This document shows positions 1 through 57,814 of a stretch of 64,000 nt of DNA, piece after piece. A program made the position numbers and the translations under genes. Source of the DNA: Panopea generosa (taxonomy: Eukaryota; Mollusca; Bivalvia; Adapedonta; Hiatellidae); the NCBI GenBank assembly GCA_029582155.1, contig CM055897.1, forward strand, positions 11,398,482-11,462,481, in the 5' to 3' direction. Under the pieces are notes generated by a model that had not been told where the DNA came from, did no database searches, and saw nothing but the letters and a program-made list of their open reading frames with translations. Each line of letters opens with the position of its first letter. Position 1 is the first letter of the stretch.

Positions 1-238
1 AGTGCTCCAGATAAGCTTTTCTTCAAATGAGTATTTTACCCTTTAAATTAGTATGCAATGCTTATTTTCAAAATATTAGGGTTAAAATTAACAAATTGCC
101 ATATAAAACAAAATAATCAACGCTGAAATTGAGAATAACCAATGCTTATTCTACCCCTTAATTTAAATCCCCATGCATTTTAGTTTTTTTTGCATTATAT
201 TAACAATATTAAATACATAAAATACATTTCACTTTTTA

Positions 239-587: not shown

Positions 588-599
588 TCTTTTTCCCAA

Positions 600-868: not shown

Positions 869-880
869 TCTTTTTCCCAA

Positions 881-2117: not shown

Positions 2118-3103
2118 ATTAGAACTGGTCGTCTAAGACTTTGTCTCAAGTGACCTTTTGCGATTGCCTTTTGTCCATTATGCGTTGTCCATCATGCGTC
2201 TGTAAACAATTCATATGTTTTGCTTCTTCTAAAAAAATATTGTAATGAAATTTTGCATGTAGCTTTGGTACTTAAAGGTGAATCAAAAAACATTTTTTCT
2301 CATTACTGAATAGACTCATTTAAATGGTTTTTGGTGTGATTTGTTATTGCTGACATGACGGTCATAATTTATGTTTGAATTTATGCCCCTGACCTCCAGG
2401 GACCTAGGGAAGAGACCTAGGGGTGGGACCAAAACAGCAAAATAAATAGTAAACTTCCAAAAAATTGTAATTAATATGGGAAGTGCTTGGAAACATATTG
2501 TCAGCATAATTAAAGAGGCCTACAGGTCCTTCATGAAATTTGTGAATTTCATGCCCCTGTGTGTCTCTCCATTTGACCCTTGGGGTGGGACCTACATTAC
2601 TAAATCCATATAGAGAAAATAACAAAAACTGTTATTTCTCATGACTGAAATAATAATTTATTTGAATGGTTTTTGGTGTGTTTTGTTGTTGCTAACATGA
2701 CAGTTGATATCTTTGTTTTATTGAATGCTCCATCCCCTCTGTGTCCTTCGGGATGGGGCCAAAACAGTCAAATGCAAGGTAAGATTAAAAATTATTTTTA
2801 TTATAAAAAAACCCAACTTGGAATCAAATGGTAAGCATGATTATTGAGGCCTTTGGGTCCTTTATAAAAAATGTGATTTGCATACCCCTGGGTCTAAGCA
2901 CTTGGTCCTGGGGTTGGAGCCTACTTTACAAAATCTATATAAAAGAAAATGACAAAAAGCTTTATTTCTCACATTACTGAATATACTTATTTGAATGGTT
3001 TTTGGTATGATTTGTTGTTGCTGACATGATGGTCAAAATGCCCTAAATTTCAGGCTAAAACGCCCCTCAGGTGACCACTAAGGCCCATGGGCCTTTTGCT
3101 CCT
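2118..3103 (+). mobile_element. Internally repeated element ending in palindrome AAGGCCCATGGGCCTT
   Basis: Three tandem units of about 335 bp share ACTGAATAGACTCATTT, GGTTTTTGGTGTGATTTG and TGCTGACATGACGGTC, near 2305, 2640 and 2970. The block ends at a perfect 16-bp palindrome (3080-3095) followed by TTGCTCC, like the hairpin-ended families elsewhere in the window. It lies just before MDH1 exon A. Confidence 0.6.
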
Positions 3104-3278
3104 TTTATATGCCAATGAAAATTGCAACTTTATTCTGCTCCTAACCTACTTTTCCACCAAGCCATATGCAGCCCCAGGCCTTCAGCACTCACAGCACTTT
3201 GGATTTAATTCAAGATAAGGTTCCTACATGTACAAATCAACTTAACAGACATTAGAATTTATAATTCTTGTATTCCAG

Positions 3279-3454
3279 AAATTATTCCAACAGCTGACCC
3301 AGCAGTTGCATTCAAGGATGTTGATGTTGCTATTTTGGTTGGAGCCATGCCTAGAAAAGAGGGTATGGAGAGGAAAGACTTGCTGGCAGCAAATGTCAAA
3401 ATATTCAAGGTTCAAGGAGAAGCACTTGACCAACATGCCAAGAAAAATGTCAAG
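3279..3454 (+). CDS. MDH1: MDH1 coding exon A (active-site loop)
   Basis: The acceptor is TATTCCAG before 3279 and the donor is AAG|GTATAT after 3454. After two carried bases it encodes 58 residues, from [13 protein letters not shown] to QHAKKNVK. It contains the mobile active-site loop with substrate-binding arginines ([11 protein letters not shown]). Confidence 0.93.
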
Positions 3455-6400
3455 GTATATATTTTTATATAATTGACATGAATAAAAATGATATGCAGTG
3501 GAGTTTATACAGTGGCTATGTAATACAACTTTCTGTATCGCCCCAGTTTTCATTCCTTGTATTACTACAGTGGCTCTGTAATACAACTTTCTGTACTCAC
3601 ATATGATTTCTTTCTTTCAATTACTACAGAGGCTATGTAACGGTAATGCAACTTTCTGTATCACCCACGTATGATTTCTTTCCTTATATTACTACAGTGG
3701 CTATGATATGTTAATACAACTTTCTGTATCACCCACATATGTCTTTTCTTATATTACTACAGTGGCTATGTAATACAACTTTCTGTATCACCCACATATG
3801 AATTCTCTCCTGTATTACTACTGTAGCCATAATACAACTTTCTTTATTGCCCACATATGATTTCTTGCCTGTATTACTACTGTGGCAATGTAATACAACT
3901 TTCAACTGGTTTGAAACAATAATCTTTCAAAAAATGTTTTTTTTATTTGATGAAATAAGTAAAAAAAAAGGTTACGTTAATTGCCAATATGAATTTAAGA
4001 CGTTTTTTACCAACTTCTGTGAAGCACGCTACACATTATCATGACACACTATGCTGGATTTACATCCAATTTCATTTACATACACTTTTTCACTAAGAAG
4101 ACGGTCATTTTTGTTGAATAAAAAAACTAAACGATGCCATTTCAAATACAACTGTACACCATTTTGAGCTCTTCTGGCCAAAGGTCAGCATGGCTTATGT
4201 CATGGTAAATGTTGTTGTCCATCTGTTAATGTTTTTGTTTTTTTGTAGATGCGATAGTGTCCCCCTTTTAAGCTATTAACTATTCGTAAAATATTGGGTA
4301 AGGGGGGCTATTGTACTCGCCTTGGTGTGGGCATTGGTTTTTCAGGTGAAAGTTTTTTAACAGGTAAGATATCTATGCAACCACTCAATCAATATGAATG
4401 AAACTTCACAAAGAACCATAACTCTAGGTTGCATTTTTGCAGAGTAATTACCCTTTTTGGATTTAATTTTTCAGGTTAAAGTTTTTATCAGGTAAGCTAT
4501 CTATGCAACCACTCATACGATATGAATGAAACTTCACATGTGTTATCAGCATAATCAATGAATCACACGGAGATATGAACCATAACTCTGGGTTGCATTT
4601 TTACAGAGTTATGGCCCTTTTGGATTTAGAAAATTTGGTTTAAGATTTTTAGAGGTTTAAGTTTTTGATTTGGTATTCATTTCATCGTCCTATCATTGGA
4701 CATGAATGAAACATCACATGTGTATTTAACATCCTCTGATAAACTCATAGAGACAAAATCATAACTCTTGATTGCATTTTGGCAGAATTATTTCCCTTTA
4801 GGCTTAGAAATTTTATTTTTAACAGGTTAATGTTTGTAGTACAAGGCCTTGATCTTAGATGTTTGACAAATAGGGTTAGTTTGTGGTCCTCTCTCAAATT
4901 TACTTCAAAACCATGACCCTGGGGACAAAATTGGCCCACCCTAAGGGGTAATTTTTTTTCTTTTTTTGTTCTAAAAGTTACCTTTTTTTTTGGCCCATCC
5001 TGAGGGGAAAACAATTTCACTTTTATTTCTTTTATCATTTTTTTTTATCAAAGTTTAATCTTTTTTCTTTTTTGGTGAAGTTTAATCCTTTTTCTTTTTA
5101 GCTCACCTGAGTGATCGCCTGGTGTCCGTCGTCTGTCATTCGTTGTTAACTTTTAACTTTTAACAACTTCTCCTCTGAAACCACTGGGCCAATTTTGATA
5201 TAATTTCACAGAAATGTTCCTTGGGTGACCCTCTACCAAATTTGTTCAAGTCATCTTGATTTGTCAAAAACCATGGCGGCCAGGGGGTGGGGTTAGTTTA
5301 CTATAATAAGCTATAGTAAAAACTAAAAAAAATCTTCTTGTCAGAAACTACCAGCTCGATTTTTAAATAATTTCACAGAAATGTTCCTTGGGTGACTCTC
5401 TACCAAGTTTGTTCAAGCCATCTTGATTCGTCAAAAAAAGTGGCAGCCAGGGGGTGGGGTTAGTTTTATGTCAAATTATTGCCCTTGTTTTATAGGATCA
5501 ATGTCTGTATATAGCAATTATTATAAGAAGAGGTAATAAACTCTTTAAATAAACTTTTTTTTTTTTCAATTATTATACAATAATATACCAGATATAAGTT
5601 TTAAAAGATAATTCATCATAAAAAGATGAATGAAACAATTATAATCAATGATTGAAATATTATTCATAAATCATGAACCATTTTAAAATAGGTGTTTTTC
5701 TGAATATAAAAGTCAGAGTTTGTATGGTTCAGACAGGGATGGTTTACTGCTTCATAATAAAGCAATACCATATTTTTAGCTAGTTTCTTCACAGCAAGAA
5801 GTCTGCTTGAGATTTTCAGTGTCAAAGTGTACTTGAAATCTCGGAGGAGGAGCTTAATTGTTTTGGGGGGAGAGTGCACTGCGACAAAGATTCTTTCAAG
5901 CGTTAGACTTTGGGAAAGCTTGTGTTTGAAAGTTTGAAACTGTGGATTGTTTCATGCACAATAGTTTAGTCTGATGCTTTAGTTTAAAACTGTTCTCAAA
6001 CATAACAGTTTAGTTTTGTGCTGGAACTTGATTTTTATCTTAGTTCGAAGACTTAGTTTTGGAACGGTCTTCAAACGTATAGGCAGCTATAGTAAATTTC
6101 AAAAGCCTTCTTGTCAGAATCTACTGACCTGATTTTGATGTAATTTCACTGACATTTACCATGGGTGAACCTTTACCAAGTTTGAACTCTTTTTCGCATC
6201 TGTTACATCTTAAAAACAAATCAAAATTCTAACTACTTGCCCATCTCAAATTTTGAGTGTACATGTATTATATAATCTACTTAAGTTGGGTGACTCTAAG
6301 GTGAGTCAGGTGAGCGATATAGGGCCATCATGACCCTCTTGTTTAGATTTATTTTCTTCATATTCATTAAAGGGTTTCCAGCTGCGATAAGCTGTGCATG

Positions 6401-9400
6401 CTGGTACAAGATTATTTCAACTATAGATCCATTTTCATGAACTGGTATCGATATATTGCCCTCTGAGGTGAAGAAAGTGCATAGGCCTATATGTCATGCT
6501 GAATTAAATAATATTAAGGCAATACAAGCCATCCATTCACTTTGTTGTTTTCAAAAAAACATAACTGTTGATAATGAAGGTGAATAGTGAATTATTTTGC
6601 ACATTTATTTTTAACAGATAAGCAGTAATTATAGTTTAATTTTGAGTTTTAATTGTCTTCCATTTGGTACTTATTTCCTACAAAAGCTGTTGTTTTAGAA
6701 AATCATCGAAGTAGTCGAGCGCGCTGTCCCTCCAACAGCTCTTGTTACTTTATATACTCCCTTAAACAGAGATGCCAACTCCTCCGATTTTGCCGGAGTG
6801 AATCCGATTTTTGTACGAAAAATCCGCTCTCCGATTTTCCGTGAATTGTCTCCGATTTTTAAAAAAAATGGTCCGGGATAAATTTTAAGGGTAAAACAAA
6901 TAATCAACACCGTTTACACTGACACCGGTTTTGATGTTCGGACATTTCCGTACGAGCTACATCACTTCTAGAAGCGCTATTAATTAGGTTATCCGGAAAA
7001 TACCCGAGTATTTACGAAAACAATATGGGATGATTCGGAAAGGCCGATCAACAACCTTCAAAATCCAATATGGCGGATGCAACACCACCAAAGAAAAAAA
7101 GTACGAACATAATCAAACATTTATTAAAAGTTACACCGATGCATATCCTTGCTTTTCGACATCGAAGATGGGGGTGTATTATTGCATTCTGCAAGGTCTG
7201 CAATGCAGAAATTATGTTATCTCACGGTGGGATGGGTGATTGGAAAAAAAACATTGCTACAAAACAGCACATCACCCGTTCAACTTGTCAGTCGTCGTCA
7301 AGGAAAATATCGACAATGGTCGCGACAACTCAACCAATGGATGAGTCGGTAATTAAATCCCAATAAAGCTTAATTTGAATGTTCAATAAAGCCTCGCTTT
7401 TCATCAGTTTGTCAGCTTTTTTAATTTATTCTATAAAACTCGATCACTCAATTCTCTTCTTCATCAGGTATTATGAAATATTTCTTAATAAATACATGAA
7501 TTTTTATCACTGAAAAGTGCTGAAATGCCATCTCAGAGCATATACAACTTGAAAAAAATTCTGGGGGAGGACCCCAAGACCCCCCACAAAAACCTTGCTT
7601 TGGACCACACTCCTATTTTCAGTATTTTAAGGGTTGGCATCTCTGCTTTAAAGAGTATTGTAATTGTATTCAGTTTAAAAGTTATGATTTTTTATTCCTT
7701 TTAAAGGTTGTAGTTATTGGTAACCCAGCCAATACTAATGCCCTGATCTGTAGTAAATACGCACCAAGCATCCCGAAGGAAAATTTCACAGCCTTGACAC
7801 GTCTGGATCAAAACAGAGCCCAGGCCCAGGTAATAATTATATTGATTGTTTACTGTACATGTATACTATACTTTATTCAACTTATTTTGTTTATGACTAC
7901 TTATTATTTTTACAACTTCTGATACACATCTTCCCAAAGTTGATATTGAACAAAGCTCTTTGCTGAGAATACAGGTTACTTGACAACTGAGACTTCCCCC
8001 AGTTTATATTGAATGCAACTCTCTACTGAAAATACAGGTTACTTGACCACTGAGGCTTCCTCCAGTTTATATTTATGAGGCTTTCTGCTGAGAATACAGG
8101 TTACTTGACCACTGAGGCTTCTCCAAGTTTATATTGAATGAGGCTCTCTGCTGAGAATACAAGTATCTTGGCCACTGAGGTTTCCTCCAGTTTATATTGA
8201 ATGAGGCTCTCTACTGAGAATACAGGTTGCTTGACCACTGAGGCTTCCCCCAGTTTATATTGAATGAGTCTCTCTGCTGAGAATACAGGTTACTTGACCA
8301 TTGAGGCTTCCCCCAGTTTATATTGAATGAGGCTCTCTGCTGAAAATACAGGTTACTTGACCACTGAGGCTTCTCCCAGTTTAAGTTGAATGAGGCTCTC
8401 TACTGAGAATACAAGTTACTTGACCACTGAGGCTCCCTCCAGTTTATATTGAATATATGACTCTGCTGAGAATACAGGTTACATAACCACTGAAGCTTCT
8501 CCCATTTTATATTGAATGGGGCTCTCTGCTGAGAATACAGGTTACTTGACCACTGAGGCTTCTCCCATTTTATATTGAATGAGGCTTTCTACTGAGAATA
8601 CAGGTTACTTGACCACTGAGGCTTCTTCCAGTTTATATTGAATATGACTCTGCTGAGAATACAGGTAACTTAACCACTGAGGCTTCTCCCATTTTATATT
8701 GAATGAGGCTCTCTGCTGAGAATACAGGTTACTTGACCACTGAGGCTTCCTCCAGTTTATCTTTAATGTGGCTCTCTGCTGAGAATACAGGTTACTTGGC
8801 CACTGAGGCTTCCCCTAGTTTATATTGAATGAGGCTCTCTGCTGAGAATACAGGTTACTTGACCACTGAGGCTTCCTCCAGTTTATATTGAATGTGGCTC
8901 TCTGCTGAGAATACAGGTTACTTGGCCACTGAGGCTTCCCCTAGTTTATATTGAATGAGGCTCTCTACTGAGAATACAGGTTACTTGACCACTGAGGCTT
9001 CCTCCAGTTTATATTGAATGAGGCTCTCTACTGAAAATACAGGTTACTTGACCACTGAGACTTCCCCAGTTTATATTGAATGAGGCTCTCTACTGAGAAT
9101 ACAGGTTACTTGACCACTGAGACTTCCCCAGTTTATATTGAATAAGGCTTTCTACTGAGAATACAGGTTACTTGACCACTGAGGCTTCTTCCAGTTTATA
9201 TTGAATATGACTCTGCTGAGAATACAGGTAACTTAACCACTGAGGCTTCTCCCATTTTATATTGAATGAGGCTCTCTGCTGAGAATACAGGTTACTTGAC
9301 CACTGAGGCTTCCTCCAGTTTATATTTAATGTGGCTCTCTGCTGAGAATACAGGTTACTTGGCCACTGAGGCTTCCCCTAGTTTATATTGAATGAGGCTC

Positions 9401-12400
9401 TCTGCTGAGAATACAGGTTACTTGACCACTGAGGCTTCCTCCAGTTTATATTGAATGTGGCTCTCTGCTGAGAATACAGGTTACTTGGCCACTGAGGCTT
9501 CCCCTAGTTTATATTGAATGAGGCTCTCTACTGAGAATACAGGTTACTTGACCACTGAGGCTTCCTCCAGTTTATATTGAATGAGGCTCTCTACTGAAAA
9601 TACAGATTACTTGACCACTGAGACTTCCCCAGTTTATATTGAATGAGGCTCTCTACTGAGAATACAGGTTACTTGGCCACTGAGGCTTCCCCTAGTTTAT
9701 ATTGAATGAGGCTCTCTGCTGAGAATACATGTTACTTGACCACTGAGGCTTCCTCCAGTTTATATTGAATGAGGCTCTCTACTGAAAATACAGGTTACTT
9801 GACCACTGAGACTTCCCCAGTTTATATTGAATGAGGCTCTCTTCTGAGAATACAGGTTACTTGGCCACTGAGGCTTCACCTAGTTTATATTGAATGAGGC
9901 TCTCTGCTGAGAATACAGGTTACTTGACCACTGAGGCTTCTCCATGTTTATATTGAATGAGGCTCTCTACTGAGAATACAGGTTACTTGACCACTGAGGC
10001 TTCCCGCAGTTTATATTGAATGCGGCTCTCTGCTGAGAATACAGGTTTCTTGACCACTGAGGCTTCCTCCAGTTTATATTGAATGAGTCTCTCTGCTGAG
10101 AATACAGGTTACTTGACCACTGAGGCTTCCCCCAGTTTATATTGAATGTGGTTTTCTACTGAGAATACTGGTTACTTGACCACTGAAGCCTCCCCCAGTT
10201 TATATTGAATGCGGCTCTCTGCTGAGAATACAGGTTACTTGACCACTAAGGCTTCTCCCAGTTTATATTGAATGAGGCTCTCTACTGAGAATACTGGTTA
10301 CTTGACCACTGAGGCTTCTCCAAGTTTATATTGAATGAGGCTCTCTGCTAAGAATACAGGTTGCTTGACCACTAAGGCTTCCCACAGTCTAAATTTAATG
10401 AGGCTCGCTGCTGAGAATACAGGTTACTTGACCACAAAGGCTTTCCTAAGTTTCTATTGAATGGGTCTCTATACTGAGAATACAGGTTACTTGACCACTG
10501 AGGCTTCTCCAAGTTTATATTGAACAAGGCTCTACTGAGAATACAGGTTATTTGTACACTGAGGCTTCCCTGATTATATATTAAATGTGGCTCTCTACAG
10601 TTAGGTCTCATTTGAAGATAATGGTTTATCTTATTTATGAGAAATTTGTTAATACACAGGTCAATTTTTTCCATTTTATTTGTCAATGTTTTAGCATAAC
10701 CAGATACTGGCCAATGAGTGATTTTTTAGCAGGCCGAGATTAATTATTTGGTCAACAAAATTAAAGAATTACGCACTACAGAGACAAAATACAATTATAA
10801 GTTATTGAAAAAAATATCCATGATAATATATGATGTTTGATATATAAATGTACAGTACTGTTGCTAGGATAAAAAAAAATATGATATAGGTGATGCATGT
10901 TTAAGTAGTTGTTCATTTTTTGCCTTCTCAAGGTACAAGGCATTTGACTCTTAAAATTTAAATAATTCCCATTCTAGAGTAAAATCTTCTAAAATTCCAG
11001 AAATACATCTCTCAGAGGATGATGATCACTAGGAAACCAAGTTAGGCAATGTTGTAATATTGGCTATTACAAATCTAAATCCCTAATGGAAACTTTAAAA
11101 AACATTTTCAAGTTCAAGCCATAGACCTTAGATATTTTTCATGTAGCTTTGTATGAAGGTCCCCTAAAAGGGTTGTTCAAATCAGGTCCCAGTGTCAAAT
11201 TTGGGGCTGCCATAGGGATTACTGATTTACATAAAGCAGTATTGCGAAATGTTTTCATATAGACACGATAACATCCCAATTTTTTCATTGAATCTTAACC
11301 GAACTTGCACAGCAGTTATATAAACACAAGATCTCGGAAAAGTTGTTAAACAAGCACGACTCAACCACAAATGCCCCTGCCACTGGTCTTATAAGCACAT
11401 TTTTAGCAGTTATATAACCTCATGATCTCAGAAAAGTTCTTGAACCAGTGTCATTCGACCACAAATGCTCCCACCACAGGGCTAATAAGCACACATAAAA
11501 ACATTTTCTCTGAATGTTCAAGTTAAAGCCCTTAGATTTTTGCGAGAGGTTTATAAGCACAATTTAATGGGAACTTTCAAAACAAAATCCTTTTGCATTT
11601 TGTTTCAAATAGAGTGATTCAGGTCCTCTTGTGCCTCTTGCTTTTCCTAAATTTTTAAATTCTTCTTCTCAGAAAGTACAAGGTGTTGTTAAGTCATATC
11701 AGTTATAGGATCTATTATAAGGGATTTGATAACCATAAGGGGCCAGCAGGGGCCCAAAAATGGAATAATATTGGGAACATCTTTTTCTCAATAACTGGTT
11801 TTCCAAATTTGTTTATACTTTGTGGAAATGAGCCATATGAGCAAGGGTTTTTAATTTTGTTCAAATAAAGGGCTAGAGTCTATTGGGACCAGTTATGTTT
11901 TTTTGATTGTTAGATGGGGATGCTATGAAAATACATTCTCAGTTCTTCATAGGATTAATCTTTTCAGAATTTTAAAATATATAACACATGTAATGCTCAA
12001 ACAACCCTCGACTGAAACTATATTGTCAAGTTTGAGCCATCAAAGTTCGACTGTAGGTAAAATTAGGTGATTTTTTTCTATTTCACTCCATTACTTAATG
12101 CTATGAGTTGGATTACTGTCAGATCTGGCAGAATCAGGAGTATCACAATCTTCTTCCAAGGTTGTACCTCCAAATTAAGGTAAACAGGCTAGTATTTAAA
12201 AATATTCTTTTATTTTTTTCACACAGTTGATTTTGTATAAATGTGGACACTCAAAGGTGTCGTGCTTTAATTTCAAAATGATATCTCATATATATTTTCA
12301 GCTTAAGTAAAGCTGTTCTGACCCATGTCCATCATGCATCCGGCCTTACAAGTTCAAATCCCCGCCCGGCAACAGTCTCCGTGATAATTGATATACGACA

Positions 12401-15400
12401 TTGTGTTCCATTATCATTTGTCTCTCACCACTGATACAAGTCGGAAAGTTATCAGTTACTTGCGGAGATAGGGTTTGCTCAAGTACTGGTTAACCTTTCA
12501 GGATCCCAGGAAACAGTGGTTAGGTTAACTGATCGTCTGTTAGCCCTTGATGGCATAAAAATGATGCTAAATATTCAATCAATCAGTCAATCAATCAAGT
12601 ACCCATATTTTTCATCGGACCTTTAACAAACTTAAATAGTAGTTAATTGGATAATTAATTAAAGTTATGGTCCTTGGAAAAGAAAAAAATGCTGTATTTG
12701 AATTTGGTTGTCTCTAGCACCTGCATTTTTCATTTGATATCACCAAACTTACACAGTTGTTATCTCAGACAAGTATTTGAACTGAACAAATCAGATGATT
12801 AATGGAGTTGTGATCCTGTGTGCACTCAGGCAGTCACAGTTTTTATTTGTTCTTCCCCAAACTTACAAAGTAGTTATATATCTGTAAAATATCAGCTGAC
12901 CAACTTTAAATGTTTGAGGTATGGCCTTTGCATCAACAAGAATTTTTTCTTTAGTCATGTCTACCCGCCTACAGTGAGCACTTCATGGTCAGTGTGGTTT
13001 AAGCATTATAGAAATACTCTCCATCCATCTATTTCTCTTAAAAAAATCTTATGGATCATACATTTAGTGACATATCTCATTTTCTGTTGAAATCCAATTT
13101 ACAAATTTGTATCGTCTTTATAATGTTGTGATCTAGAAAATTTTAATCTATTTATCCAGATAGCTGAGCGTTTGGGCATCTCCAACAATAATGTTTACAA
13201 TGTGATCATCTGGGGTAACCACTCATCCACTCAGTATCCAGATATCAGGAATGCCAAGGCTCTTGTCAATGGCAATGCAGTTGCTGTACCAGAAGCCGTC
13301 AAGGATGATGATTGGCTGAAGAATGCATTTATTTCTGTGAGTTGCTTTCTATTATCAGAAGCCTTGCTAAATATTTTCAAGTAGCTTCATCTTGATTCAT
13401 CAAAAAACATGGCTGCCATGGAGCGGGGCATGTTTAATTAGTAAAAACTTAAAAAATCTTCTTGGCAGAAACTACCAGCTCGATTTTTAAATAATTTCTC
13501 AGAAATGTTCCTTGGGTGACCCTCTACCAAGTTTGTTCAAGCCATCTTGATTCATAAAAAAACATGGCCGCCAGGGGGCGGGGCAAGTTTAATTAGTAAA
13601 AAACTTAAAAAAATCTTCTTGTCAGAAACTACTGGCTCGATTTTAAAATAATTTCACAGAAATGTTCCATGGAGGACCCTTCACCAAGTTTGTTCAAACC
13701 GTAGTGATTCGTCAAAAAACATGGCAGCCAGGGGGTGGGGTTAGTTTACTATATAAGCTATAGTAAAAACTTAAAAAATCTTTTTGTCAGAAACCACCGG
13801 ATCGATTTTAAAACAATTCGCAGAAATGTTCCTTGGGTGACCAAGTTTGTTCAAGCCATTGTGATTTGTTAAAAAACATGACCGCCACAGTGAGGTGTTA
13901 GTTTACTATATAGGCAGCTATAGGAACAACTTCAAAAGCTTTCTTGTCAGAATGTACTGACTTGATTTCAATGTAATTTCACTGACATTTACCATGGGTG
14001 AAGCTCTACCTGCTTGAACTCTTCTACGCATCTGTTACATCTTCAAAACAAATCAAAATTCTAACTACTTGCCCGTCTCGTTTTTCTGGAATTTTGAGTG
14101 TACATGTATGTATTATATAATCTACTTAAGTGTGGTGACGCATGGTCAGTCAGGTGAGCGATATAGGGCCATCTTGTATATATTTATATTGCTGTGAAGA
14201 GTTGTATATAGCTGTGAAGAGTTATATATTTTTATATAGCTGTGAAAAGTATATATTTTGATATAGCTGTGAAGAGTTATATATTTTTATATAGCTGTGA
14301 AAAGTTATATATTTTTATGTAGCTGTGAAGAGTTATATATTTTTATTTAGCTATGAAGAGTTATATATTTTTAGCTTGAATATTCAGAGAATAAAGAGAG
14401 CTATATTCGGAGAATAAAGAGAGCTATTCGACTCACCCAAGCGTCGGCATTGGCGTCACACCTTGGTTTAAGCTTTGCATGCAAGTTCCTATCTCAGTAA
14501 CCTTTGCATGTATTGACTTGAAACTGTACACAAGCCTTCCCAGTCATCAGCCCTACTACAATAACTAAGTTAGAGAACTCTTGCATGAATATAATACAAA
14601 TTATTGCCCTTGTTTTACTTAGACATTCTGGTTAAAGTTTTGCCTCCAAGTCTCTTTCAGTAACCATGGCATGTATTGACTTGAAACTTTACACAAGCCT
14701 TCCCAGTCATCAAGCCTGCTACAATAACTAAGTTAGATAACTCTTGCTTGAATATAGTGCAAATTATTGCCCTTGTTTGACTTAGAAATTCTGGTTAAAG
14801 TTTTACGTGCAAGTACCACCAAGTCCATATCACACCAACCACTCAATGTATTTGATTGAAACTTTACGTATGGCTTTGTAGTTATGAAACCAACTAAATT
14901 AATCAAGTGGGATAACTCTTGCTAGACTTTTTGCATATTAAGGCCTTTGTTTGACTTAGAAATTGTATAACTCGGTAGTCACTGCATGTATTAGATTGAA
15001 ACTTCATACAAGGTATTGCAGTAACAAGACGTACTCAATTTTGTTGATTTTGTAAGTTAGATAACTCTTATTTGCTTGGATTTGTCATCTGTCTCAATCA
15101 AATTTGTACTTTTGTGACAAATATTCAAATAGTTGAGCGTGCTGTCCCTCCGACAGCTCTTGTTATATTTTTTTATCCCCCTCAAAAAATCTTTTGGGTG
15201 GCATATAGTAATCGCAGCGTCCGTTTGTCCGGGTGGACAAATGGGTATTTAAGTGTCTAGGGTTTAGGGTTAGTAATTTTTATGGACAGTTGAAAAGCTG
15301 TTGAAAAAACATTAAGTGGCTGTTCTAGACACTTAAAAAACAGCTCTTAGGTGGCTTTTTTTTTCTTACGTGGCTAAAATTTAGCCACACAAGTAATACG

Positions 15401-18400
15401 ATTGATGCAAAGAAGCCACTTAAATACCCATTTGTGAGAACGTCCGTCCTTCCGTCCGATATTTTGTTTCCGGCCTGTAACTTTGTCATGCATAGATGGA
15501 TTTTGCCGATACTTGCAACAAATGATCAACAGAACATGACGACGTGTCGCGGGTAAACCCACACCTGTACTTCAAGGTCGAAGGTCACAATTTGAGTTTG
15601 TTTGACAACACTTTGAGTTTATGTGAGATTTCGTTTCTGGCCTGTAACTTTGTCATGCATAGATGAATTTTAATGATACTTGCTACAAATGATCAACATA
15701 ACATCATTACATGTTGGGGGGCATGTGACACTTAACAGTGACATTTTTTGTTTATATATCTGTGAAGAGTTATATATTTTTTATAGCTGTGAAGAGTTAT
15801 ATATTTTTATATAGCTTTGGAGAGTTATATATTTTTTATAGCTGTGAAGAGTTATATATTATTTTATGTAGCTTTAAAAACATATCTATATTTAATAGCT
15901 TTGAAGCTGTATGAGGTTTGATACTTTCATGTAAAGTTAAATATTTTAATGTATCTGTGTAAAGCTTTAAATATTTTATGTACATATGAAACCATGCATT
16001 GTGTTAAGTGTCGCATGCAACTTCTCTATTACAGACAGTACAAACACGTGGAGCTGCCGTCATTAAAGCTCGTAAACTTTCCAGTGCAATGTCAGCAGCA
16101 AAGGCCATCTGTGACCATGTCAGTAGCTGGTGGTTTGGAACAGAAGAGGTAAGAGGGAAGCTTAAAAATAAATTCCATAAAATTTAATTTGATAGGAGTA
16201 GTAGTGCAAGCTAAAGATAGGTTTCCTGTTGACGAAGAACCCAAAAATACCTATTTCAGGATATCTGCAGAACAGTTAATGGAAGTATGATCATCATTAC
16301 ATAGTTTAAGCAAGTAATATAAACTGAAAAAAAGAAGAATTTTATCATTTATCTCATTCATCACCAATAAAACTGGATATACCATATAAATAACCTGAAA
16401 TGTGTTGAAAATGATGTTAAACGGCTATGTGTATGTACATGTAGTGTCCTTGGGCAAGACACTTAATCCACATATGCTTAGTGCTGGTTCTACCCAGCAA
16501 GACTTCAAACCTGATTTGTCGCAAGTACACGTCGGTCACCTTTAATGGTCAAATGCTTGTCAGTTATAAGTCATGTCTAGTTGGGAACTCAATCAAACTT
16601 TACAGAAATATTTTGCATTCAAAATTCAGGTTTGATATGTATAAAGTCAACTTTGAAGTTTCATGGACTTATTTATTGGAGCATGGTTGTTTTTCAACTA
16701 TGTTTAGAAACCTTTAATATCACTATTTACCTGTGTTAAAAGTGCTGTGTCTAATTATTATACACACACAAACAAATGTTAAGTGATGTTAAAAACAACT
16801 GAACAAAAAGCAAAAAAAATATTTTCGTTTCTGGTTGGCCCCTGAAAAAAAAAAAGAACAGCAATTTCTTTTTTCCCCTTTGAGGTACAGTTGTTACTCA
16901 CCAACTCGAACTCTTTTATTTCGAAATTCCGGTTATCTCAAATTTGAAATTCGGTCCCGTTTTTTCTCCTTCTATTTCTATATTTATGAACTCCGGATAT
17001 ATCAAATTCCAGTAATTTGAATTATTCACTATTTCGAATTCGTTCTTCGGTCCCTCCATATTAAAATCTATTGATTTCTCACTCGTTATTTCGAATTTTT
17101 TATCACCGCGTGAAGATGAAATGCAAACCGCCGAAAGTTATAATTGCTGATCCTATATCTGTAATTTATCGCTTCATGTATCTGTACTGGCAGGAAAGAT
17201 AATTGGGTCATCAAAGTGTTATGATACAAAAACAAGCGAGACACATGCTAATTGGGCAAACAACGCTGCTGCTTGTTTTGGTTAAAGCGATAACACTAAA
17301 AATTGAGTGAAGAATTATTATTCACAATGTGTGAAACGCAAAGTAATCTCATGAAACACATTTTGTTTGTCTATTATATCACACTTTATTACAATGTTCA
17401 CGCACTGGGCAAATAGACAATTACACACGGATAACAACGTACAACATACGTTTGCTTAGAAGAAAATGATGCATATAAACAGTAGAATTTACCACGATTT
17501 AAGATCAATCCACAGTATAAACAAAGTTTATATCATGTGTAAATACAAAAACAACGTGTTATATTGAGTAAAAAACAACATATATAGGTAATTACATGTA
17601 AACATATATTTCCAATGATTTATGAAGTGGGTTGGGTAACGGTGAAAAGATGCACAAAGGTAGACTCCTGATAAATCGAAGTCCGGATATTTCGAATTGT
17701 TTTTACGGTCCCATGGAATTCGAAATAACGAGTGTCGACTGTATATGCACTAGTAATGTTCAAAACAAGCTGGTCATTAGTTGGAGGTGTATGTTAACCA
17801 AGCTATGTCATACATTAAAGATTCCTTGTACTGTTTGGGATAACAATAACAAATTTTCAGTCAAATTAGGGTGGGGTCTACTTGCGGCAGAATTCACTCT
17901 GTCACTCTGGGCAGCCATGTTGCATATCGTGCTGTAACCAAATTAGAGTATTGTATTGAAAGTAAAGATTTCGTCAGGTATAATGTAGTGACTGTAATGG
18001 AAATCATTCAGATCAACAAAATTTTAAATAAAGTTTTAGAAGGCAAGTGAAGTGATATCTTCTATAGCCATTGTGTGAAGTACAATTTTGTTCTATAACC
18101 TTTGTTATACTGTTGACCACAATTTCATCCGACTGATAAAATAGTTTCAAAATGCAATTGCCATAGTAGAGGACATGTTGCACAATAAGAGATCCAATTT
18201 TTATTTTATTGTGGTTTGCTTTTACCAAACAAAGTGAAAAACTGATACTTAAAGTATACATTTTCTTGAATATTGAAAAGCAGACAACACCTTTATCACT
18301 GCGCATAATAGAAAACACTTGGTTAACTTTTCATTGATAATCCAAAATATCCAATACCTGTTACTTTGATAATCCAAAATTCAGATTGTAATCAGCTTTA

Positions 18401-19283
18401 ACCATTATGTATGGTGCCGAGTTGTTTATCTCTTCACTGCCAAGTACATGTATTATCGGTTTGAGAATACCCTTAGCAAAATCATGACTGGAAGTAGGCC
18501 ATTTTGGTTGCATTCACAAATTAAACAAAGAAAGTGAAAACTTTGTACCAAAGTGTTTATACTTCATTAGCGATCACCGATTAATGGTGTATGTTTAATA
18601 TCAGCACATCAAAAAGTGAGGACATTCATTGGTATTGTGATGGACTTTCAGGACCTGAGAAAGATTGTTATGTCGCTAAAATTAAACTTGCATGAATGAT
18701 ATGATCCTTGCTATTCATTTACATTAATTTTCTATATAAAAATATCGACCAATAAACAACCAGATATATCTATCATCTGTTCAATTTCAATTTTTGTAAA
18801 CAGAAATGGTGACATAAAATGAAAGAAGAATGTATATAGATGATGTTTTTGGAGCATTTTTTCCTGATAATATTTTTCTGTGGTTAGAGATGTATATATA
18901 TGCTAGTGATGATGAATTTTTGAGGGATAGTCGGCCAACCAGAATCAAAGATATTTTCCATAGCCTCGCCAAATAAAAGATTGTTTTTATGTGGTTTCAT
19001 AATCAAGTTTCCAAACAATGATGTGATTTATGAAAACTGCTGTTATTTGTATATTCTCAATTTGTTTTAGGGCAAATGGGTATCAATGGGTGTAATAACA
19101 GGCGGGGAATACGGGGTGCCAGCGGGTTTGATGTACAGCATGCCAGTAATTATTGATAAGCAGAAGAAATGGACCATTGTTGAAGGTCTAGACATCGATG
19201 ATTTCTCTAGAGACAAGATGGATAAGACTGCAAAGGAACTGGAAGAGGAACGCAATGCAGCACTGGCAGTATGTCAGGATTGA
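3279..19283 (+). CDS. MDH1: Cytosolic malate dehydrogenase, C-terminal five coding exons
   Basis: NAD-dependent malate dehydrogenase of the cytosolic type interconverts malate and oxaloacetate and works in the malate-aspartate shuttle. Five exons join in frame: 3279-3454, 7707-7829, 13160-13336, 16035-16148 and 19071-19283, all with AG acceptors and GT donors. Together they encode about 266 residues that follow animal cMDH closely. The active-site loop [13 protein letters not shown], the GNPANTN motif, the RLDQNRA Asp/Arg pair and the catalytic His in [11 protein letters not shown] are all intact. Animal cMDH has about 334 residues, so roughly 66 are missing from the N terminus, including the glycine-rich NAD motif. 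Their exons were not seen in 1-3278 and probably lie upstream. The first visible exon begins with two bases of a split codon (phase 1). All later introns are phase 0. The gene converges on the TEDC1-like gene. Confidence 0.95.
3495..3910. repeat. Tandem repeat, about 60-70 bp unit
   Basis: About six imperfect units of TATTACTACAGTGGCTATG, then TAATACAACTTTCTGTATC and ACCCACATATGATTTC. They sit directly after MDH1 exon A, in the intron. Confidence 0.8.
4181..4260 (+). mobile_element. Fragment of a hairpin-family 5' end
   Basis: It reads GAGCTCTTCTGGCCAAAGG, then CAGCATGGCTTATGTCATGG. This is the head of the same family that starts at 59410 (CTACTGGCCAAAGGCCAGAA), with a further fragment at 47144-47220. 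The rest of the element is missing here. Confidence 0.5.
4262..4840 (+). mobile_element. Repeat element related to 239-587
   Basis: It contains GGGGGGCTATTGTACTCGCC and two or three units of GGTAAGATATCTATGCAACC, ATGAATGAAACTTCAC and ACCATAACTCTGGGTTGCAT. The units are about 120-170 bp and decay to the right. No open frame has support. Confidence 0.55.
5100..6344 (+). mobile_element. Complete hairpin-family element, about 1.25 kb
   Basis: It starts after TTTTT with AGCTCACCTGAGTGATCGCC. Near the 3' end, TCAGGTGAGCGATATAGGG (6306-6324) is the inverse of that start. It ends with the imperfect hairpin GGGCCATCATGACCC followed by TCTTGTTT. Inside are two tandem units (CAGAAATGTTCCTTGGGTGA, CATGGCGGCCAGGGGGTGGG). 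A T-rich segment and a sequence not seen in the second copy (5500-6070) suggest a nested insertion. It is non-coding and lies in a MDH1 intron. Confidence 0.65.
6487..6746 (+). mobile_element. Hairpin-TCTTGTT element, 3' part, copy 2
   Basis: Same sequence as 1850-2117, ending GCTGTC-CCTCC-AACAGC and then TCTTGTT. The left stem is intact and the right stem has one substitution. Confidence 0.75.
6767..7645 (+). mobile_element. hAT-like DNA transposon, internally deleted
   Basis: An 879-bp segment begins CAGAGATGCCAAC and ends with its inverse GTTGGCATCTCTG, both 13 bp and perfect. The flanks CCTTAAA (6760-6766) and CTTTAAA (7646-7652) look like a 7-bp target duplication with one mismatch. hAT termini typically begin CAGRG and duplicate 8 bp. 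It encodes only a zinc-finger exon (7070-7366); no transposase catalytic region remains. It lies in the MDH1 intron before exon B. Confidence 0.75.
7070..7366 (+). CDS. Zinc-finger N-terminal remnant of a hAT-type transposase
   Basis: A 98-codon frame starts [19 protein letters not shown] and carries a C2H2 finger, [19 protein letters not shown] then [13 protein letters not shown]. The spacing (CxxC, HGGxxDW, TKxH) is like the BED-type fingers at the N terminus of hAT transposases. The frame stops before any RNase-H-fold catalytic domain, so it cannot transpose by itself. It could still encode a small DNA-binding protein able to bind hAT ends, but there is no expression evidence. Confidence 0.55.
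   Translation: MADATPPKKKSTNIIKHLLKVTPMHILAFRHRRWGCIIAFCKVCNAEIMLSHGGMGDWKKNIATKQHITRSTCQSSSRKISTMVATTQPMDESVIKSQ
7707..7829 (+). CDS. MDH1: MDH1 coding exon B
   Basis: The acceptor TTTTAAAG precedes 7707 and the donor CAG|GTAATA follows 7829. It encodes exactly 41 codons, [11 protein letters not shown] to [10 protein letters not shown]. It holds the conserved GNPANTN motif and the Asp and Arg of the catalytic and substrate site. Confidence 0.93.
7930..10600. repeat. 62-bp minisatellite, about 43 copies
   Basis: The consensus unit runs GAGGCTCTCTGCTGAGAATA, CAGGTTACTTGACCACTGAG, GCTTCCCCCAGTTTATATTGAAT. Most units are 60-64 bp with scattered variants. A higher-order block of about 563 bp (nine units) is duplicated: the variant unit AATATGACTCTGCTGAG occurs at 8641 and 9204 with matching neighbours. 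It fills the front of the intron between MDH1 exons B and C. Confidence 0.95.
10601..12315. other. Intron sequence with decayed hairpin-family repeats; no gene
   Basis: It contains repeated phrases such as TTCAAGTTCAAGCC and CTCAGAAAAGTTCTTGAACC, plus GGTCCTCTTGTGCCTCTTGC near 11623-11642, which looks like a degraded hairpin-family 3' end. No exon-like frame is seen. Confidence 0.45.
12320..12600 (+). mobile_element. tRNA-derived SINE, second family, ATCA tail
   Basis: It has a B-box-like GTTCAAATCCCCGCCCGGC, a body including CAAGTACTGGTTAACC and GTGGTTAGGTTAACTGATCG, and a tail of repeated AATC. The 3' body recurs at 27925-27975. The A box is degraded or missing. Confidence 0.7.
13160..13336 (+). 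CDS. MDH1: MDH1 coding exon C (catalytic histidine)
   Basis: The acceptor TTTATCCAG precedes 13160 and the donor TCT|GTGAGT follows 13336. It encodes 59 codons, from [11 protein letters not shown] to DWLKNAFIS. The catalytic His lies in [13 protein letters not shown]. Confidence 0.94.
13385..14175 (+). mobile_element. Second copy of the 5100-6344 element, 5'-truncated
   Basis: It holds three or four tandem units of about 150 bp (CAGAAATGTTCCTTGGGTGA, CATGGCAGCCAGGGGGTGGG). Then come ACTGACATTTACCATGGGTG and GTCAGGTGAGCGATATAGGG, as at 5100-6344. The terminal hairpin is damaged (GGGCCATCTTGTA). It starts 49 bp after MDH1 exon C, with no visible 5' terminus. Confidence 0.65.
14176..14372. repeat. 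28-bp minisatellite, left half
   Basis: About seven units of AGCTGTGAAGAG then TTATATATTTTTATAT. The same array resumes at 15752-15930, so the DNA between is an insertion into one array. Confidence 0.85.
14373..15168 (+). mobile_element. Hairpin-family element inserted in a minisatellite
   Basis: It begins after TTTTT with AGCTTGAATATTCAGAGAAT and contains GACTCACCCAAGCGTCGGCA. Repeated units of about 170-180 bp follow (AACTTTACACAAGCCTTCCC, GATAACTCTTGCTTGAATA). It ends GCTGTC-CCTCC-GACAGC (15141-15157) then TCTTGTT. A truncated minus-strand copy is at 30797-31020. Confidence 0.7.
15169..15751. mobile_element. Second nested element with 19-bp inverted repeat
   Basis: It starts TTTTTTTATCCCCCTCAAAA and continues AGCGTCCGTTTGTCCGGGTG. 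Near its end are TGTTGGGGGGCATGTGACAC and TTTTTTGTTT. Nested in it is a segment bounded by perfect 19-bp inverted repeats: ACAAATGGGTATTTAAGTG at 15237-15255 and its complement at 15417-15435. That segment looks like a small MITE, but no target duplication is clear. Confidence 0.55.
15752..15930. repeat. 28-bp minisatellite, right half
   Basis: Four or more units of AGCTGTGAAGAGTTATATAT, decaying to the right toward MDH1 exon D. This continues the array at 14176-14372. Confidence 0.8.
16035..16148 (+). CDS. MDH1: MDH1 coding exon D
   Basis: The acceptor CTATTACAG precedes 16035 and the donor GAG|GTAAGA follows 16148. It encodes 38 codons beginning [20 protein letters not shown], one of the best conserved stretches of animal cMDH, and ending SSWWFGTEE. 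Confidence 0.94.
16325..16600 (+). mobile_element. SINE fragments of two families
   Basis: ACCAATAAAACTGGATATAC and CTGAAATGTGTTGAAAATG (16362-16415) match 38024-38090 and, inverted, 24310-24400. GTCCTTGGGCAAGACACTTA and ATATGCTTAGTGCTGG (16446-16490) match, inverted, 30660-30710 and 46095-46145. Confidence 0.55.
16888..17741. mobile_element. pogo/Tigger-like MITE
   Basis: It is an 854-bp segment flanked by TA at 16886-16887 and 17742-17743. The right end, read inward, is CAGTCGACACTCGTTATTTC. The left end CAGTTGTTACTCACCAACTC is a decayed form of it. Both ends carry repeated ATTTCGAA and CGGTCCC phrases. Tigger-like elements have such ends and TA duplications. No transposase frame survives. 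It is in the last MDH1 intron. Confidence 0.6.
17742..19070. other. Last MDH1 intron, right part; nothing recognised
   Basis: AT-rich, with frames of about 100 codons on both strands (17632-17937 plus, 18013-18318 minus) that show no domain, composition or splice support. Confidence 0.5.
19071..19283 (+). CDS. MDH1: MDH1 terminal coding exon
   Basis: The acceptor TTGTTTTAG precedes 19071. It encodes 70 residues ([17 protein letters not shown], then a C-terminal helix ending NAALAVCQD) and the TGA stop at 19281-19283. The tail [16 protein letters not shown] matches the family's C-terminal helix. Length and end point fit full-length cMDH. Confidence 0.94.
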
Positions 19284-19310
19284 CCGACTCCATGTGTGGC
19301 TAAATTGTAA
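19281..19310 (+). other. MDH1: Possible stop-readthrough extension with peroxisomal signal (PTS1)
   Basis: The MDH1 stop is UGA followed by C, a leaky context. In the same frame the next eight codons read Pro-Thr-Pro-Cys-Val-Ala-Lys-Leu, then TAA at 19308-19310. A terminal Ala-Lys-Leu fits the PTS1 consensus (S/A/C)(K/R/H)(L/M). Vertebrate MDH1 is known to be extended by UGA readthrough into a peroxisomal isoform with a cryptic PTS1. That this gene does the same is inference. Confidence 0.6.
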
Positions 19311-19745
19311 CCCTGATCTGCAGGAATTCAGATTATATTACAGTTACGCATTGTTTTTTTTTTACTGTGAAGCTATTTAAGTTACTGTGAACAAGGTCAG
19401 AACACTCGTTTTTAGATAACCAATTTAGAATAAGGTACAATTGTCCAACCATGGTAGTGTTGTTTAGAAGTTTGTAATATGGGTCATACTTTCGTTGTTG
19501 ACATTTCATTTTCTAAAATTTTTCATTGTTGTGTTGACACATCTTATAGGTTAATGAGAAACACTGCAAAACATTCATAGTTCCAATCCTAGGGACTCCC
19601 CCACCCCCAACTCAATGTGCTTATGTTTGTGCTACTTTCATTTAGTGTATTTTACCCCAGTGTTAACTGCTATTATGTATGGCTACATAGATATATAATG
19701 TGCTGGTATAAATTAATGATGAAATAAAATTACTTCAATAACCAG
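19284..19745 (+). promoter_or_regulatory. MDH1: MDH1 3' UTR with polyadenylation signal
   Basis: About 460 bases of AT-rich sequence without coding potential follow the stop. A canonical AATAAA at 19723-19728 gives a likely cleavage site near 19745. No closer AATAAA was noticed between the stop and this site. Confidence 0.6.
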
Positions 19746-19979
19746 ATGTAATTTTGTTTTTATTTCCTGAAAAATGTGATGTACATATTCTACCTCTCTA
19801 CGTGAATTAATGAGGACTCGGTCGCAGCAAGTTTCAATCCCTCTTGATTGGTTGTAGTGGCTTTTATGTCCTGAACTAATAAATACATCAGAAAACTGTG
19901 TCGTCCATATATTGGTGCAATGTGTCGGCTCCTGTGACCTGAAACTAATAAAGATGTAAAATACATGATCTGTTAATGA

Positions 19980-20290
19980 AGAATTGTGGCCATGGGGCAG
20001 TGTGTTTGTGTTATGGACAGAGTGGTGACCGTGCATGCAAGAAGTTGTTGGTTCAATACCAGGCTAGTTCTGTTGACCTATCAAAACAACATCCAGGCCC
20101 AGGTTTCACAAAAGTACTTAATTCTGTTATTTTACTTAATTAAATAGTGTGCTCAATTTTAGTATTGAGTAAGTAAAATAAAATAAGACTTGAGTATTTT
20201 CATGAAATTGGGGCCAGTACTCTACTCTGGGCAAATGAACCCTAGAACTACTTACAAGAGCTCTGTGCTTACATTGCAATCAACTTGAGT
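19980..20290 (+). mobile_element. tRNA-like SINE head with foldback MITE
   Basis: A tRNA-like stretch with B box GTTGGTTCAATACC (20048-20061) is followed by a near-palindrome at 20096-20215. Its left arm is GGCCCAGGTTTCACAAAAGT and the right arm read back is GGCCCCAATTTCATGAAAAT. The arms are about 45-50 bp and can form a long hairpin. Confidence 0.6.
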
Positions 20291-20559
20291 GAAATAGTAT
20301 ACATGTAAATCAAAATCCACATGAATCGTTGTATAGAATATTGGTGTGCAGGAATATCATGACATCAATATATACTCATTTATATAAGCAGTACCATGTA
20401 CAACAATACTTACATAAACCATGTAAAGAGCATGTCGGGAATAAATTGGCCAAACTGTTTCCACATTTCTACAGAAGCGTGTATATCAATAACCGGTCTT
20501 CACGATTCGACAATGTTACTCGCAGTCTCGGTTCAATATCACTAATCTTCACCTCATCA

Positions 20560-21720
20560 CTTTTTGTCGGTCATCAATTTTTTTTAAACAACTTCTCTTC
20601 ACAACTACTTGACAGATTTTCACCAAAGTTTGTGTGAATCATTCTTCCATGTAGCTCAAATTTGTTTGTTGTGATTCTGTGGTCAAATTTGGCCTTGCCA
20701 CAGAGGCTTATCAGTCTGCAGCCCCCTCCCAATTTTAAATATCTGCACCAAAGGTGCAAGGCCTGAAACTTTGATATTTGCATGTAGTAGGGGATTTCAA
20801 TTTTGTTCAATTAATGGGGCTAGGGTCGGGGTCCATTGGCACCCAGTAAGGGGATTTTGAATTTCACAGGAATACTATGGGAAAACAGTAAAGTTTTTTT
20901 TAATCTATTTTTTTTTTCAACCATATTTATGTCTGGAGCATTGTTTAGTTATAACAGTTGAGTCTGTCCTTTAAAGGGGATAAGAATATGAACAAATATT
21001 AGTATTTGAACAATCATGAATCGTCTGTTCTTAGGTATCATTTAATCCAAATATAAACAAATTTGGCTACTCAGTTCTTTGGAGAGTCCATATAAGAATG
21101 CTTCACACCAACTTTAGTGAAACTCTTTTGAGAAGATTCTGAAGTCATTTGAAGGCAAGCTTGAAATGTATTTCAGTATTGTCATGTGTCTCTTTGAGTA
21201 AAAATGCTAAAACTTTCAATTTCCATCTTACCTAAACTGGTTCAGAAGAGTAAATAGATGGAGAAATATTTAAATTGGCCAGATTAAACCAGAATCAACA
21301 GAGTTGTGGCCCTTGAATGATTGAAAACTGCAGACTTGAACCATGAAACACCTTAGCATCAAGTTTTTATCCAGTTGCTCAGCCAGACTGTTTCTAAGCA
21401 AGAACAAGTTTTTGAACAAACTTGTTTTGACCAGAACAACAGAATTATTGCTTTAATGCTAAGCTTTGCCTAGTGGATTGTCTTCATCCAATCCTAACTG
21501 CACATGTCAAGGATTTTTAGACCACAAGATCTGAGACATGTTCTTGAACCAGGTAATTGGACCTAAACGAAACATTGATAGGTACAGGCCCTGTTGAGGT
21601 ATTGTTGGTTTATTTTTTGATATCCAGCTTATATCGCATGCATCATAATACACTTCAAATGTCTTTACTACACTCTGGAACAAGTGCATTCCTCTTGAAT
21701 TAAGGCAGAATTATTGCCCT
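20560..21720. other. Intergenic; decayed hairpin-family repeat relics
   Basis: Phrases such as AATACTATGGGAAAACAG and GGGGCTAGGGTCGGGGTCC echo the elements at 59410-61364. There is no complete terminus and no supported gene. Confidence 0.4.
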
Positions 21721-25080: not shown

Positions 25081-26700
25081 TGTAACAGATTACCATTTGG
25101 ACAAGTCAACCAATGAGGTGAGTCCATTAATTGGAAGAGTCAACCACTGAGGTAAGTACACTTCTTGGACAACCACTGAGGTGATTCCACCACTTGGACG
25201 AGTCAACCACTGAGGTGAGTTCACCACTTGGACGAGTCAACCACTAAGTTGAGACAACCACTCCGATGTGTCCACCATTTAAACAAATCAACCACTGAGG
25301 TGAGTGAACCACCTGGACAGGTCAACCACTGATGTGAGTCCATCACTAGGACAAGTCAACCACTGAGGTGAGTCCACTAATCGGATGAGTCAACCACTGA
25401 GGTGAGTCCACAACTCAGGTGAGTCAACCACTCAGGTGTCAGCCACTGAGGTGAGTCCACAACTGAGAGGAGTCAACCACTGAGGTGAGTCCACCATTTG
25501 GACGAGTCAACCACTGAGGTGAGTCCACCACTTGGAAGAGTAAACCACTGAGGTGAATCCACCACTCAGACAAGTCAACCATTGAGGTGAGTCCACCACT
25601 AGGACAAGTCGACCACTGAGGAGAGTCAACCACTTAGACGTGTCAACCACTAAGGTGAGTCCACAACTCAGGTGAGTCAACCACTGAGTTGAGTCTACCA
25701 CTTGAGTGAGTCAACCACTGAGGTGAGTTGATCACTTCGACAAGTCAACCACTGAGGTGAGTCCACAACTCAGGTGAGTCAACCACTGAGGTGAGTCCAC
25801 CACTCGGGTGTCATCCTGTGAGGTGAGTCCACGGCTTGGAAGAGTCGACCACTGAGGTGATACCACCACTTGGACGAGTTAACCACTGAGGTGAGTCCAC
25901 CACTCAGACAAGACAACCACTGAGGTGAGTCCACCACTCGGATGAGTCCACCACTGAGGTGAGTCCACCACTCGGACAAGTCAACCACTGAGGTGAATCC
26001 ACCACTTGAATGAGTCAACCACTGAGGTGAGTCCACCACTCGGACAGGTCAACCACTGAGGTGAGCCAACCACGTTAGTGAGTCAACCACTGAGGTGAGT
26101 CCACCACTCGGACAAGTCAACCACTGAGGTGATACCACCACTTGGACGAGTCAACCACTGAGATGAGTCCACCACTCAGACAAGTCAACCACTGAGGTGA
26201 GTCCACCACTCGGATGAGTCCACCACTGAGGTGAGTCCACCACTTGGACAAGTCAACCACTGAGGTGAATCCACCACTTGAGTGAGTCAACCACTGAGGT
26301 GAGTCTACCACTTGAGTGAGTCAACCACTGAGGTGAGTCCACCACTCGGACAAGTCAACCACTGAGGTGAGTCCACCACTTGGACAGGTCAACCACCGAG
26401 GTGAGTCCATTACTTGGACGAGTCAACCAACTGAGGTGAATCCACGACTCGGGCGAGTCAACCATTTGGATAAGTTGACCACTAAGGTGATTTCACCATT
26501 TTGGTGAGTCAAACACTCAGGTGAGTCAACCACTGATGTGAGTCCACCACTCTGATGAGTCAACCACTGAGGTGAGTCCACCACTTGGACCAGTCAACAA
26601 CTGTGGTGAGTCCACCACTCGGGTGAGTCAACCAGCGAGGGGAATCTACAACTGAGGTGAGTCCACCACTTGGACAAGTCCACCACTGAGGGCAGGGTGA
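25081..26700. repeat. 34-bp minisatellite, about 47 copies
   Basis: The consensus unit is GTCAACCACTGAGGTGAG then TCCACCACTTGGACGA, repeated with point changes over 1.6 kb. Every unit carries GAGGTGAGT, which fits a 5' splice donor on the plus strand. It lies between the ends of the convergent MDH1 and TEDC1-like genes. The open frames on its minus strand (repeats of VDSPQWLT) are by-products of the repeat. Confidence 0.95.
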
Positions 26701-54407: not shown

Positions 54408-54424
54408 TTTATACGGTTACGAAA

Positions 54425-57810: not shown

Positions 57811-57814
57811 ACTA

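What the first reader, a model, noticed from the sequence alone, without database searches (positions are those of the whole stretch)
19281..19310. MDH1 readthrough frame ends in a peroxisomal signal, Ala-Lys-Leu
The stop is UGA-C, a leaky four-base context. The same frame then reads Pro-Thr-Pro-Cys-Val-Ala-Lys-Leu before UAA. Ala-Lys-Leu is a valid PTS1. By simple codon counting, a random frame would end in such a tripeptide about once in 270 times. Vertebrate MDH1 is known to produce a peroxisomal isoform by UGA readthrough. If this holds in a bivalve, the dual-targeting trick is far older than vertebrates, or evolved more than once, with a different stop context (UGA CCG rather than UGA CUA).
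Basis: partly seen in the sequence, partly recalled or inferred. Interest (0 to 1): 0.85.

Follow-up and report, generated by a model that had tools for sequence, protein, structure and literature searches.

The report
Hidden peroxisome tag behind MDH1 stop
The gene for cytosolic malate dehydrogenase here carries, eight codons past its normal stop, a signal that could send a little of the enzyme to peroxisomes; the same trick is already reported for this gene in other animals, and here it lacks the usual leaky stop context and is unproven.

Summary
The MDH1 last exon ends GAT-TGA (19281-19283); the same frame reads Pro-Thr-Pro-Cys-Val-Ala-Lys-Leu, then TAA (19308-19310). By alignment the stop lies one residue short of the human end, so it is the true gene end. 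No GT-AG intron can keep AKL and drop the UGA, because no AG lies between the stops; UGA decoding is needed.

A hidden PTS1 behind MDH1 outside vertebrates, as far as Hydra, is already in print (Stiebler 2014, passages). UGA CCG lacks the U and A of UGA CUA, and published human-derived weights place it mid-range among UGA contexts. No stabilising RNA structure or SECIS was found. No mollusc sequence could be reached, so conservation, the decisive test, is untested, and the bivalve label is unverified. I rate a maintained, low-level peroxisomal MDH1 by UGA readthrough at about 55%: a variant of a known kind.

The parts
3279..3454 (+). MDH1 exon ([13 protein letters not shown]...KKNVK); the first exon or exons were not found and probably lie before base 1
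   Evidence: AG/GT flanks and open frame; TIGR01758 MDH_euk_cyt 1.3e-26 for the ORF 3209-3469
7707..7829 (+). MDH1 exon ([12 protein letters not shown]...NRAQAQ)
   Evidence: AG/GT flanks, in-frame junctions
13160..13336 (+). MDH1 exon ([14 protein letters not shown]...NAFIS)
   Evidence: AG/GT flanks; TIGR01758 5.1e-18 for 13163-13339
16035..16148 (+). MDH1 exon ([14 protein letters not shown]...WWFGTEE)
   Evidence: AG/GT flanks, in-frame junctions
19071..19283 (+). MDH1 last coding exon, ending AVCQD-UGA
   Evidence: residues 264-328 of cytoplasmic MDH in PDB 7rm9 align
19281..19283 (+). first stop codon UGA; context CAG GAU UGA CCG ACU
   Evidence: readthrough regression score
19284..19307 (+). 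in-frame extension PTPCVAKL ending in a PTS1-type tripeptide AKL; contains no AG dinucleotide
19308..19310 (+). second stop codon UAA
19723..19728 (+). AATAAA, candidate poly(A) signal of the MDH1 transcript
   Evidence: pattern scan, sequence

Best explanation
This is an ordinary cytosolic MDH1 gene whose UGA stop is followed in frame by a nine-residue hidden extension (the residue placed at UGA plus PTPCVAKL) ending in a PTS1. Usually the ribosome stops at UGA and makes the cytosolic enzyme. Occasionally a near-cognate tRNA decodes UGA (Trp and Arg in human MDH1), the extended subunit ends in AKL, the receptor PEX5 (recalled) binds it, and it, perhaps with unextended partner subunits, enters peroxisomes, where it reoxidises NADH from beta-oxidation through the malate/oxaloacetate couple. 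Shown here: the gene, the stop, the frame, the tripeptide, its rarity by chance, and that no GT-AG intron reaches AKL without the UGA. Inferred: readthrough in vivo, PEX5 import, and selection on the signal. Expected readthrough is basal (roughly 0.1-0.7%, by analogy with the HeLa values of other UGA-C contexts), below human MDH1.
For: Chance of the motif is 0.08-0.78%, depending on motif list and null, for one gene and one frame that the literature names in advance: MDH1 hidden PTS1 is reported across animals including Hydra (passages of PMC4207609) and experimentally shown in human cells. The UGA is at the conserved gene end. UGA with C at +4 and G at -3 is on the favourable side: UGA CCG is 48th of 192 stop-plus-triplet combinations in LINfs3, and G at -3 is frequent in high-efficiency contexts. 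A 2022 review (passages) says low readthrough rates seem sufficient for peroxisomal supply and calls such sites patchy among species.
Against: UGA CCG ranks 28 of 64 among UGA triplets and 15 of 16 among UGA-C triplets in the Schueren LINfs3 weights. LINiter gives 0.16 against 0.82 for human MDH1; 54% of random UGA contexts and 35% of random contexts with any stop score as high (weights read). U at -1, as here, is associated with lower readthrough. No structure downstream (z -0.27). Abundant readthrough was found only in Pancrustacea among 52 species (whether molluscs were among them was not seen). A competing view holds that most readthrough is nonadaptive error (cited). No comparative, footprint or peptide evidence could be obtained.
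Confidence: 0.55

Rival explanations
1. Chance. The stop is a normal, efficient terminator and the downstream frame happens to end in AKL; nothing is selected.
For: Context unremarkable, no RNA structure, no SECIS. Eight other stops in the window are followed by frames ending in the same motif class, so such endings occur in frames with no reason to carry them. Readthrough may be mostly nonadaptive error (view cited). The finding was picked by a reader looking for striking things.
Against: Expected only 0.08-0.78% of the time, and it falls on the gene in which animals are reported to have exactly this feature.
Confidence: 0.3
2. Vestige. An ancestor had the UGA CUA readthrough context (or the PTS1 inside the main ORF, as Stiebler reports for some animals) and this lineage has lost efficient readthrough while the tripeptide has not yet decayed.
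For: Stiebler 2014 reports both states in animals (text and Figure 4 legend). The present context differs from UGA CUA at +5 and +6.
Against: An 8-codon unselected frame should decay quickly (inference); no relatives were available to date the change.
Confidence: 0.1
3. UGA is recoded by another route: A-to-I editing of UGA to UGG, or selenocysteine insertion, giving a regulated extended isoform.
For: Either would reach the same AKL end (inference).
Against: No SECIS family among the 4 weak matches in 19000-21500; bases 19284-19400 fold no better than shuffles. Editing was not testable without RNA reads.
Confidence: 0.03
4. Peroxisomal MDH in this animal arises by alternative splicing of the last exon, and the AKL frame is irrelevant.
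For: A GTATGT donor-like motif lies in the last codons (19269-19274).
Confidence: 0.02

Closest known systems
Vertebrate MDH1x (functional translational readthrough of MDH1; Hofhuis et al. 2016 PMC5133446, Stiebler et al. 2014 PMC4207609)
   Same: Same enzyme, same stop codon (UGA followed by C), in-frame extension ending in a PTS1-type tripeptide.
   Different: Human extension is 19 residues including the UGA residue; the tripeptide is CRL in mammals and SRL in non-mammalian vertebrates other than amphibia. Here it is 9 residues ending AKL, with CCG ACT after the stop instead of CTA GAC and no demonstrated readthrough.
MDH1 hidden PTS1 of other animals including Hydra vulgaris (Stiebler et al. 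2014, Figure 4C)
   Same: Reported conservation of a cryptic PTS1 behind MDH1 outside vertebrates, so this locus would be another entry in that list.
   Different: I saw only text and legend, not the figure's species list. The authors' human screen took genes ending in TGA CT, so a CCG context falls outside such a search.
Mammalian LDHBx (Schueren et al. 2014 PMC4359377)
   Same: Short readthrough extension with hidden PTS1 on a cytosolic NAD-linked dehydrogenase; an 18-nucleotide extension, near the 24 here.
   Different: LDHB, not MDH1; UGA CUA G context with 1.55% measured readthrough.

Membership tests
MDH1 functional readthrough with hidden PTS1 (MDH1x) | Gene is the cytosolic NAD malate dehydrogenase and the stop is at the conserved end | tested here: met
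MDH1 functional readthrough with hidden PTS1 (MDH1x) | In-frame extension after UGA ends in an accepted PTS1 tripeptide | tested here: met
   AKL fits the [SATPCVNG]KL term of the Stiebler 2014 list (list; frame); a PTS1 predictor was not available
MDH1 functional readthrough with hidden PTS1 (MDH1x) | High-readthrough context UGA CU(A) of the characterised cases | tested here: not met
   UGA CCG; mid-range among UGA contexts by published weights
MDH1 functional readthrough with hidden PTS1 (MDH1x) | Measured readthrough | not testable with these tools
   No RNA, ribosome or peptide data on hand
MDH1 functional readthrough with hidden PTS1 (MDH1x) | Extension and PTS1 conserved among related species | tested here: inconclusive
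   Viral contigs: 20 pattern matches, none a relative. Genome contigs: 80 loci kept of 81 relatives, the 80 titled as bacterial records. The genome search did not complete
MDH1 functional readthrough with hidden PTS1 (MDH1x) | Import into peroxisomes through PEX5 | not testable with these tools
   needs a reporter assay
Structure-stimulated readthrough | Stable RNA structure just after the stop | tested here: not met
   bases 19284-19400: z -0.27, 66 of 200 shuffles fold at least as well; structures farther off were not tried
Selenocysteine UGA | SECIS element in the 3'UTR | tested here: not met
   4 weak Rfam matches in 19000-21500, each below its family's gathering score, none a SECIS family

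The most novel reading that the evidence does not exclude
This lineage keeps a selected hidden PTS1 on MDH1 without the UGA CU(A) motif, so that peroxisomal MDH1 is supplied either by basal UGA-C leakage alone or by a readthrough rule not yet described in its group, with an extension that evolved independently of the vertebrate one.
Probability: 0.3. Interest if true: 0.55.

Novelty: new variant of a known kind. Interest (0 to 1): 0.33.

Why it matters
If conserved in its relatives, it would show that peroxisomes get MDH1 through stop readthrough in another animal branch, and that a weak UGA-C context may be enough. Searches restricted to UGA CU would then miss cases. It does not by itself change the reported age of the trick, which the 2014 report already extends to a cnidarian.

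Tried and rejected
Relatives: viral contigs with the last exon gave none. Genome contigs, with the alignment of the last exon and a human MDH1 stretch, gave 81 relatives, 80 kept, all 80 titled as bacterial; their matches reach at most residue 69 of 70 and they were not examined further. The genome search 'own' with the last-exon protein was sent seven times in the same form and never answered.

Literature, nine searches. Searches (16 papers; MDH1, readthrough, peroxisom, invertebrate; 5 papers) gave the main papers; passages of two of the five were read, and the other three were seen in the listing only. (stop codon readthrough, peroxisom, mollus): 1 paper, passages read, no mollusc MDH1 case in them. 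(with oyster): 0. (MDH1x): 4 papers, one of them (PMC10873952) seen in the listing only. ('UGA CCG' with readthrough): 0. (bivalve cMDH; Mytilus peroxisome): 3 papers each, listing only, none opened. One search was uninformative: 1,509 papers matched, 12 were listed, and none of these 12 holds 'readthrough' or 'PTS1'. Only CC-licensed PMC papers were searched, so absence in print is not shown.

Full report
What is there. Bases 19281-19283 are TGA, closing the last exon of an MDH1 gene. The same frame continues CCG ACT CCA TGT GTG GCT AAA TTG and stops at TAA, 19308-19310, giving PTPCVAKL. The gene was rebuilt from five exons, 3279-3454, 7707-7829, 13160-13336, 16035-16148 and 19071-19283. All junctions are AG/GT and the joined frame is open to the UGA. 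The 266-residue product matches both Pfam domains of the lactate/malate dehydrogenase family. Three stretches covering single exons rank the eukaryotic cytosolic MDH model TIGR01758 first, below its whole-protein cut-off as expected for fragments. The first exon or exons were not recognised by eye in the forward frames of bases 1-3300 and probably lie outside the window. Residues 1-65 of the last exon align with residues 264-328 of 334 of cytoplasmic MDH in PDB 7rm9. Five residues remain here and six there, so the UGA is the real end of the gene.

Is it more than chance? The class [SAC][KRH][LM] arises in 0.242% of random frames under a first-order model of the MDH1 3'UTR and 0.235% from the whole window; the wider list of Stiebler 2014 in 0.68% and 0.76%; the narrow class [SA][KR]L in 0.08% and 0.12%. 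A single-base model gives 0.24% and 0.78% for the first two. Of 520 such TGA-C sites, 1 and 4 respectively.

How could AKL be reached? There is no AG between the stops, so no GT-AG intron can remove UGA and keep AKL in frame. The UGA itself must therefore be decoded or edited. A selenocysteine route finds no SECIS match (four weak hits to other families, each under its cut-off). The 117 bases after the stop fold no better than shuffles (z -0.27, 66 of 200 at least as stable).

Is the stop leaky? Stiebler et al. found that the first and second bases after the stop mainly set readthrough and that A at the third adds to it, defining UGA CU(A) (passages and one section read). Schueren et al. print regression weights and reporter values (section 6, part 1 of 2). 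With those weights the present context scores 0.16 (LINiter) and 0.34 (LINfs3), against 0.82 and 0.94 for human MDH1. UGA CCG is 48th of 192 stop-plus-triplet combinations, 28th of 64 UGA triplets and 15th of 16 UGA-C triplets. Of random contexts with window-like base composition, 54% with UGA and 35% with any stop score at least as high. These models correlate only weakly with measurements (0.34 and 0.41) and are human. Eight UGA-C contexts without CUA in their Table 1 gave 0.10-0.66% in HeLa, against 2.91% for MDH1; none of the eight is UGA CC. A 2025 study (passages) shows that flanking bases act in non-additive ways, so prediction from CCG alone is uncertain; of the features it names, G at -3 is present here and U at -1 is unfavourable. 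Jungreis et al. 2016 (section 17 read) find abundant readthrough only in Pancrustacea among 52 species; words beginning 'mollus' or 'oyster' do not occur in that paper's main text. A competing view that most readthrough is nonadaptive is cited in a paper read in passages.

What is already known. Stiebler et al. [quoted passage not shown] I could not see the figure's species list. Hofhuis et al. 2016 describe MDH1x in vertebrates, with a 19-residue extension in human, ending CRL in mammals and SRL in non-mammalian vertebrates other than amphibia (passages). A 2022 review calls the distribution patchy and says that low readthrough seems sufficient (passages). In the searches I saw no paper on a mollusc case; one search was crowded out by unrelated papers. 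That is not proof of absence, since only open-licence papers were searched.

Verdict. The feature is real, sits at the right place, and is unlikely by chance. It would work like MDH1x: same enzyme, UGA-C, short extension, PTS1. It lacks one feature of the characterised cases (the UGA CU context), which is why I file it as a variant and not as a member, and the decisive feature (conservation) could not be tested because no animal collection was reachable: viral contigs gave none, the 80 loci kept from genome contigs are titled as bacterial, and the genome search did not complete. I put 55% on a maintained low-level peroxisomal isoform, 30% on chance, 10% on a vestige and 5% on other routes; these are judgements, not computed. 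It is of modest interest until comparative data exist.

Noticed in passing
window 7930-10596: A 63-base minisatellite of about 42 copies (88% matches) fills about half of the MDH1 intron 7830-13159.
   Followed up: no
window 36418-36696, - strand: An ORF matching Pfam TEDC1 (tubulin epsilon and delta complex protein 1, 5.1e-08, above its cut-off); other minus-strand ORFs between 27487 and 41586 may be further exons of this gene, but none of the five others tested matched a Pfam family.
   Followed up: partly
window 39020-39529, + strand: ORF with a Mos1-type transposase helix-turn-helix (HTH_48, 2.8e-06), probably a mariner-like fragment.
   Followed up: no
window 54341-55861, + strand: ORF of 506 aa matching an endonuclease-reverse transcriptase family (Exo_endo_phos_2, 8.3e-10; RVT_1 only below its cut-off), probably a non-LTR retrotransposon piece.
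   Followed up: no
window 25092-26634, 32423-33014 and 57797-58868: Further long tandem arrays with units of 34, 26 and 26 bases.
   Followed up: no
   Followed up: yes
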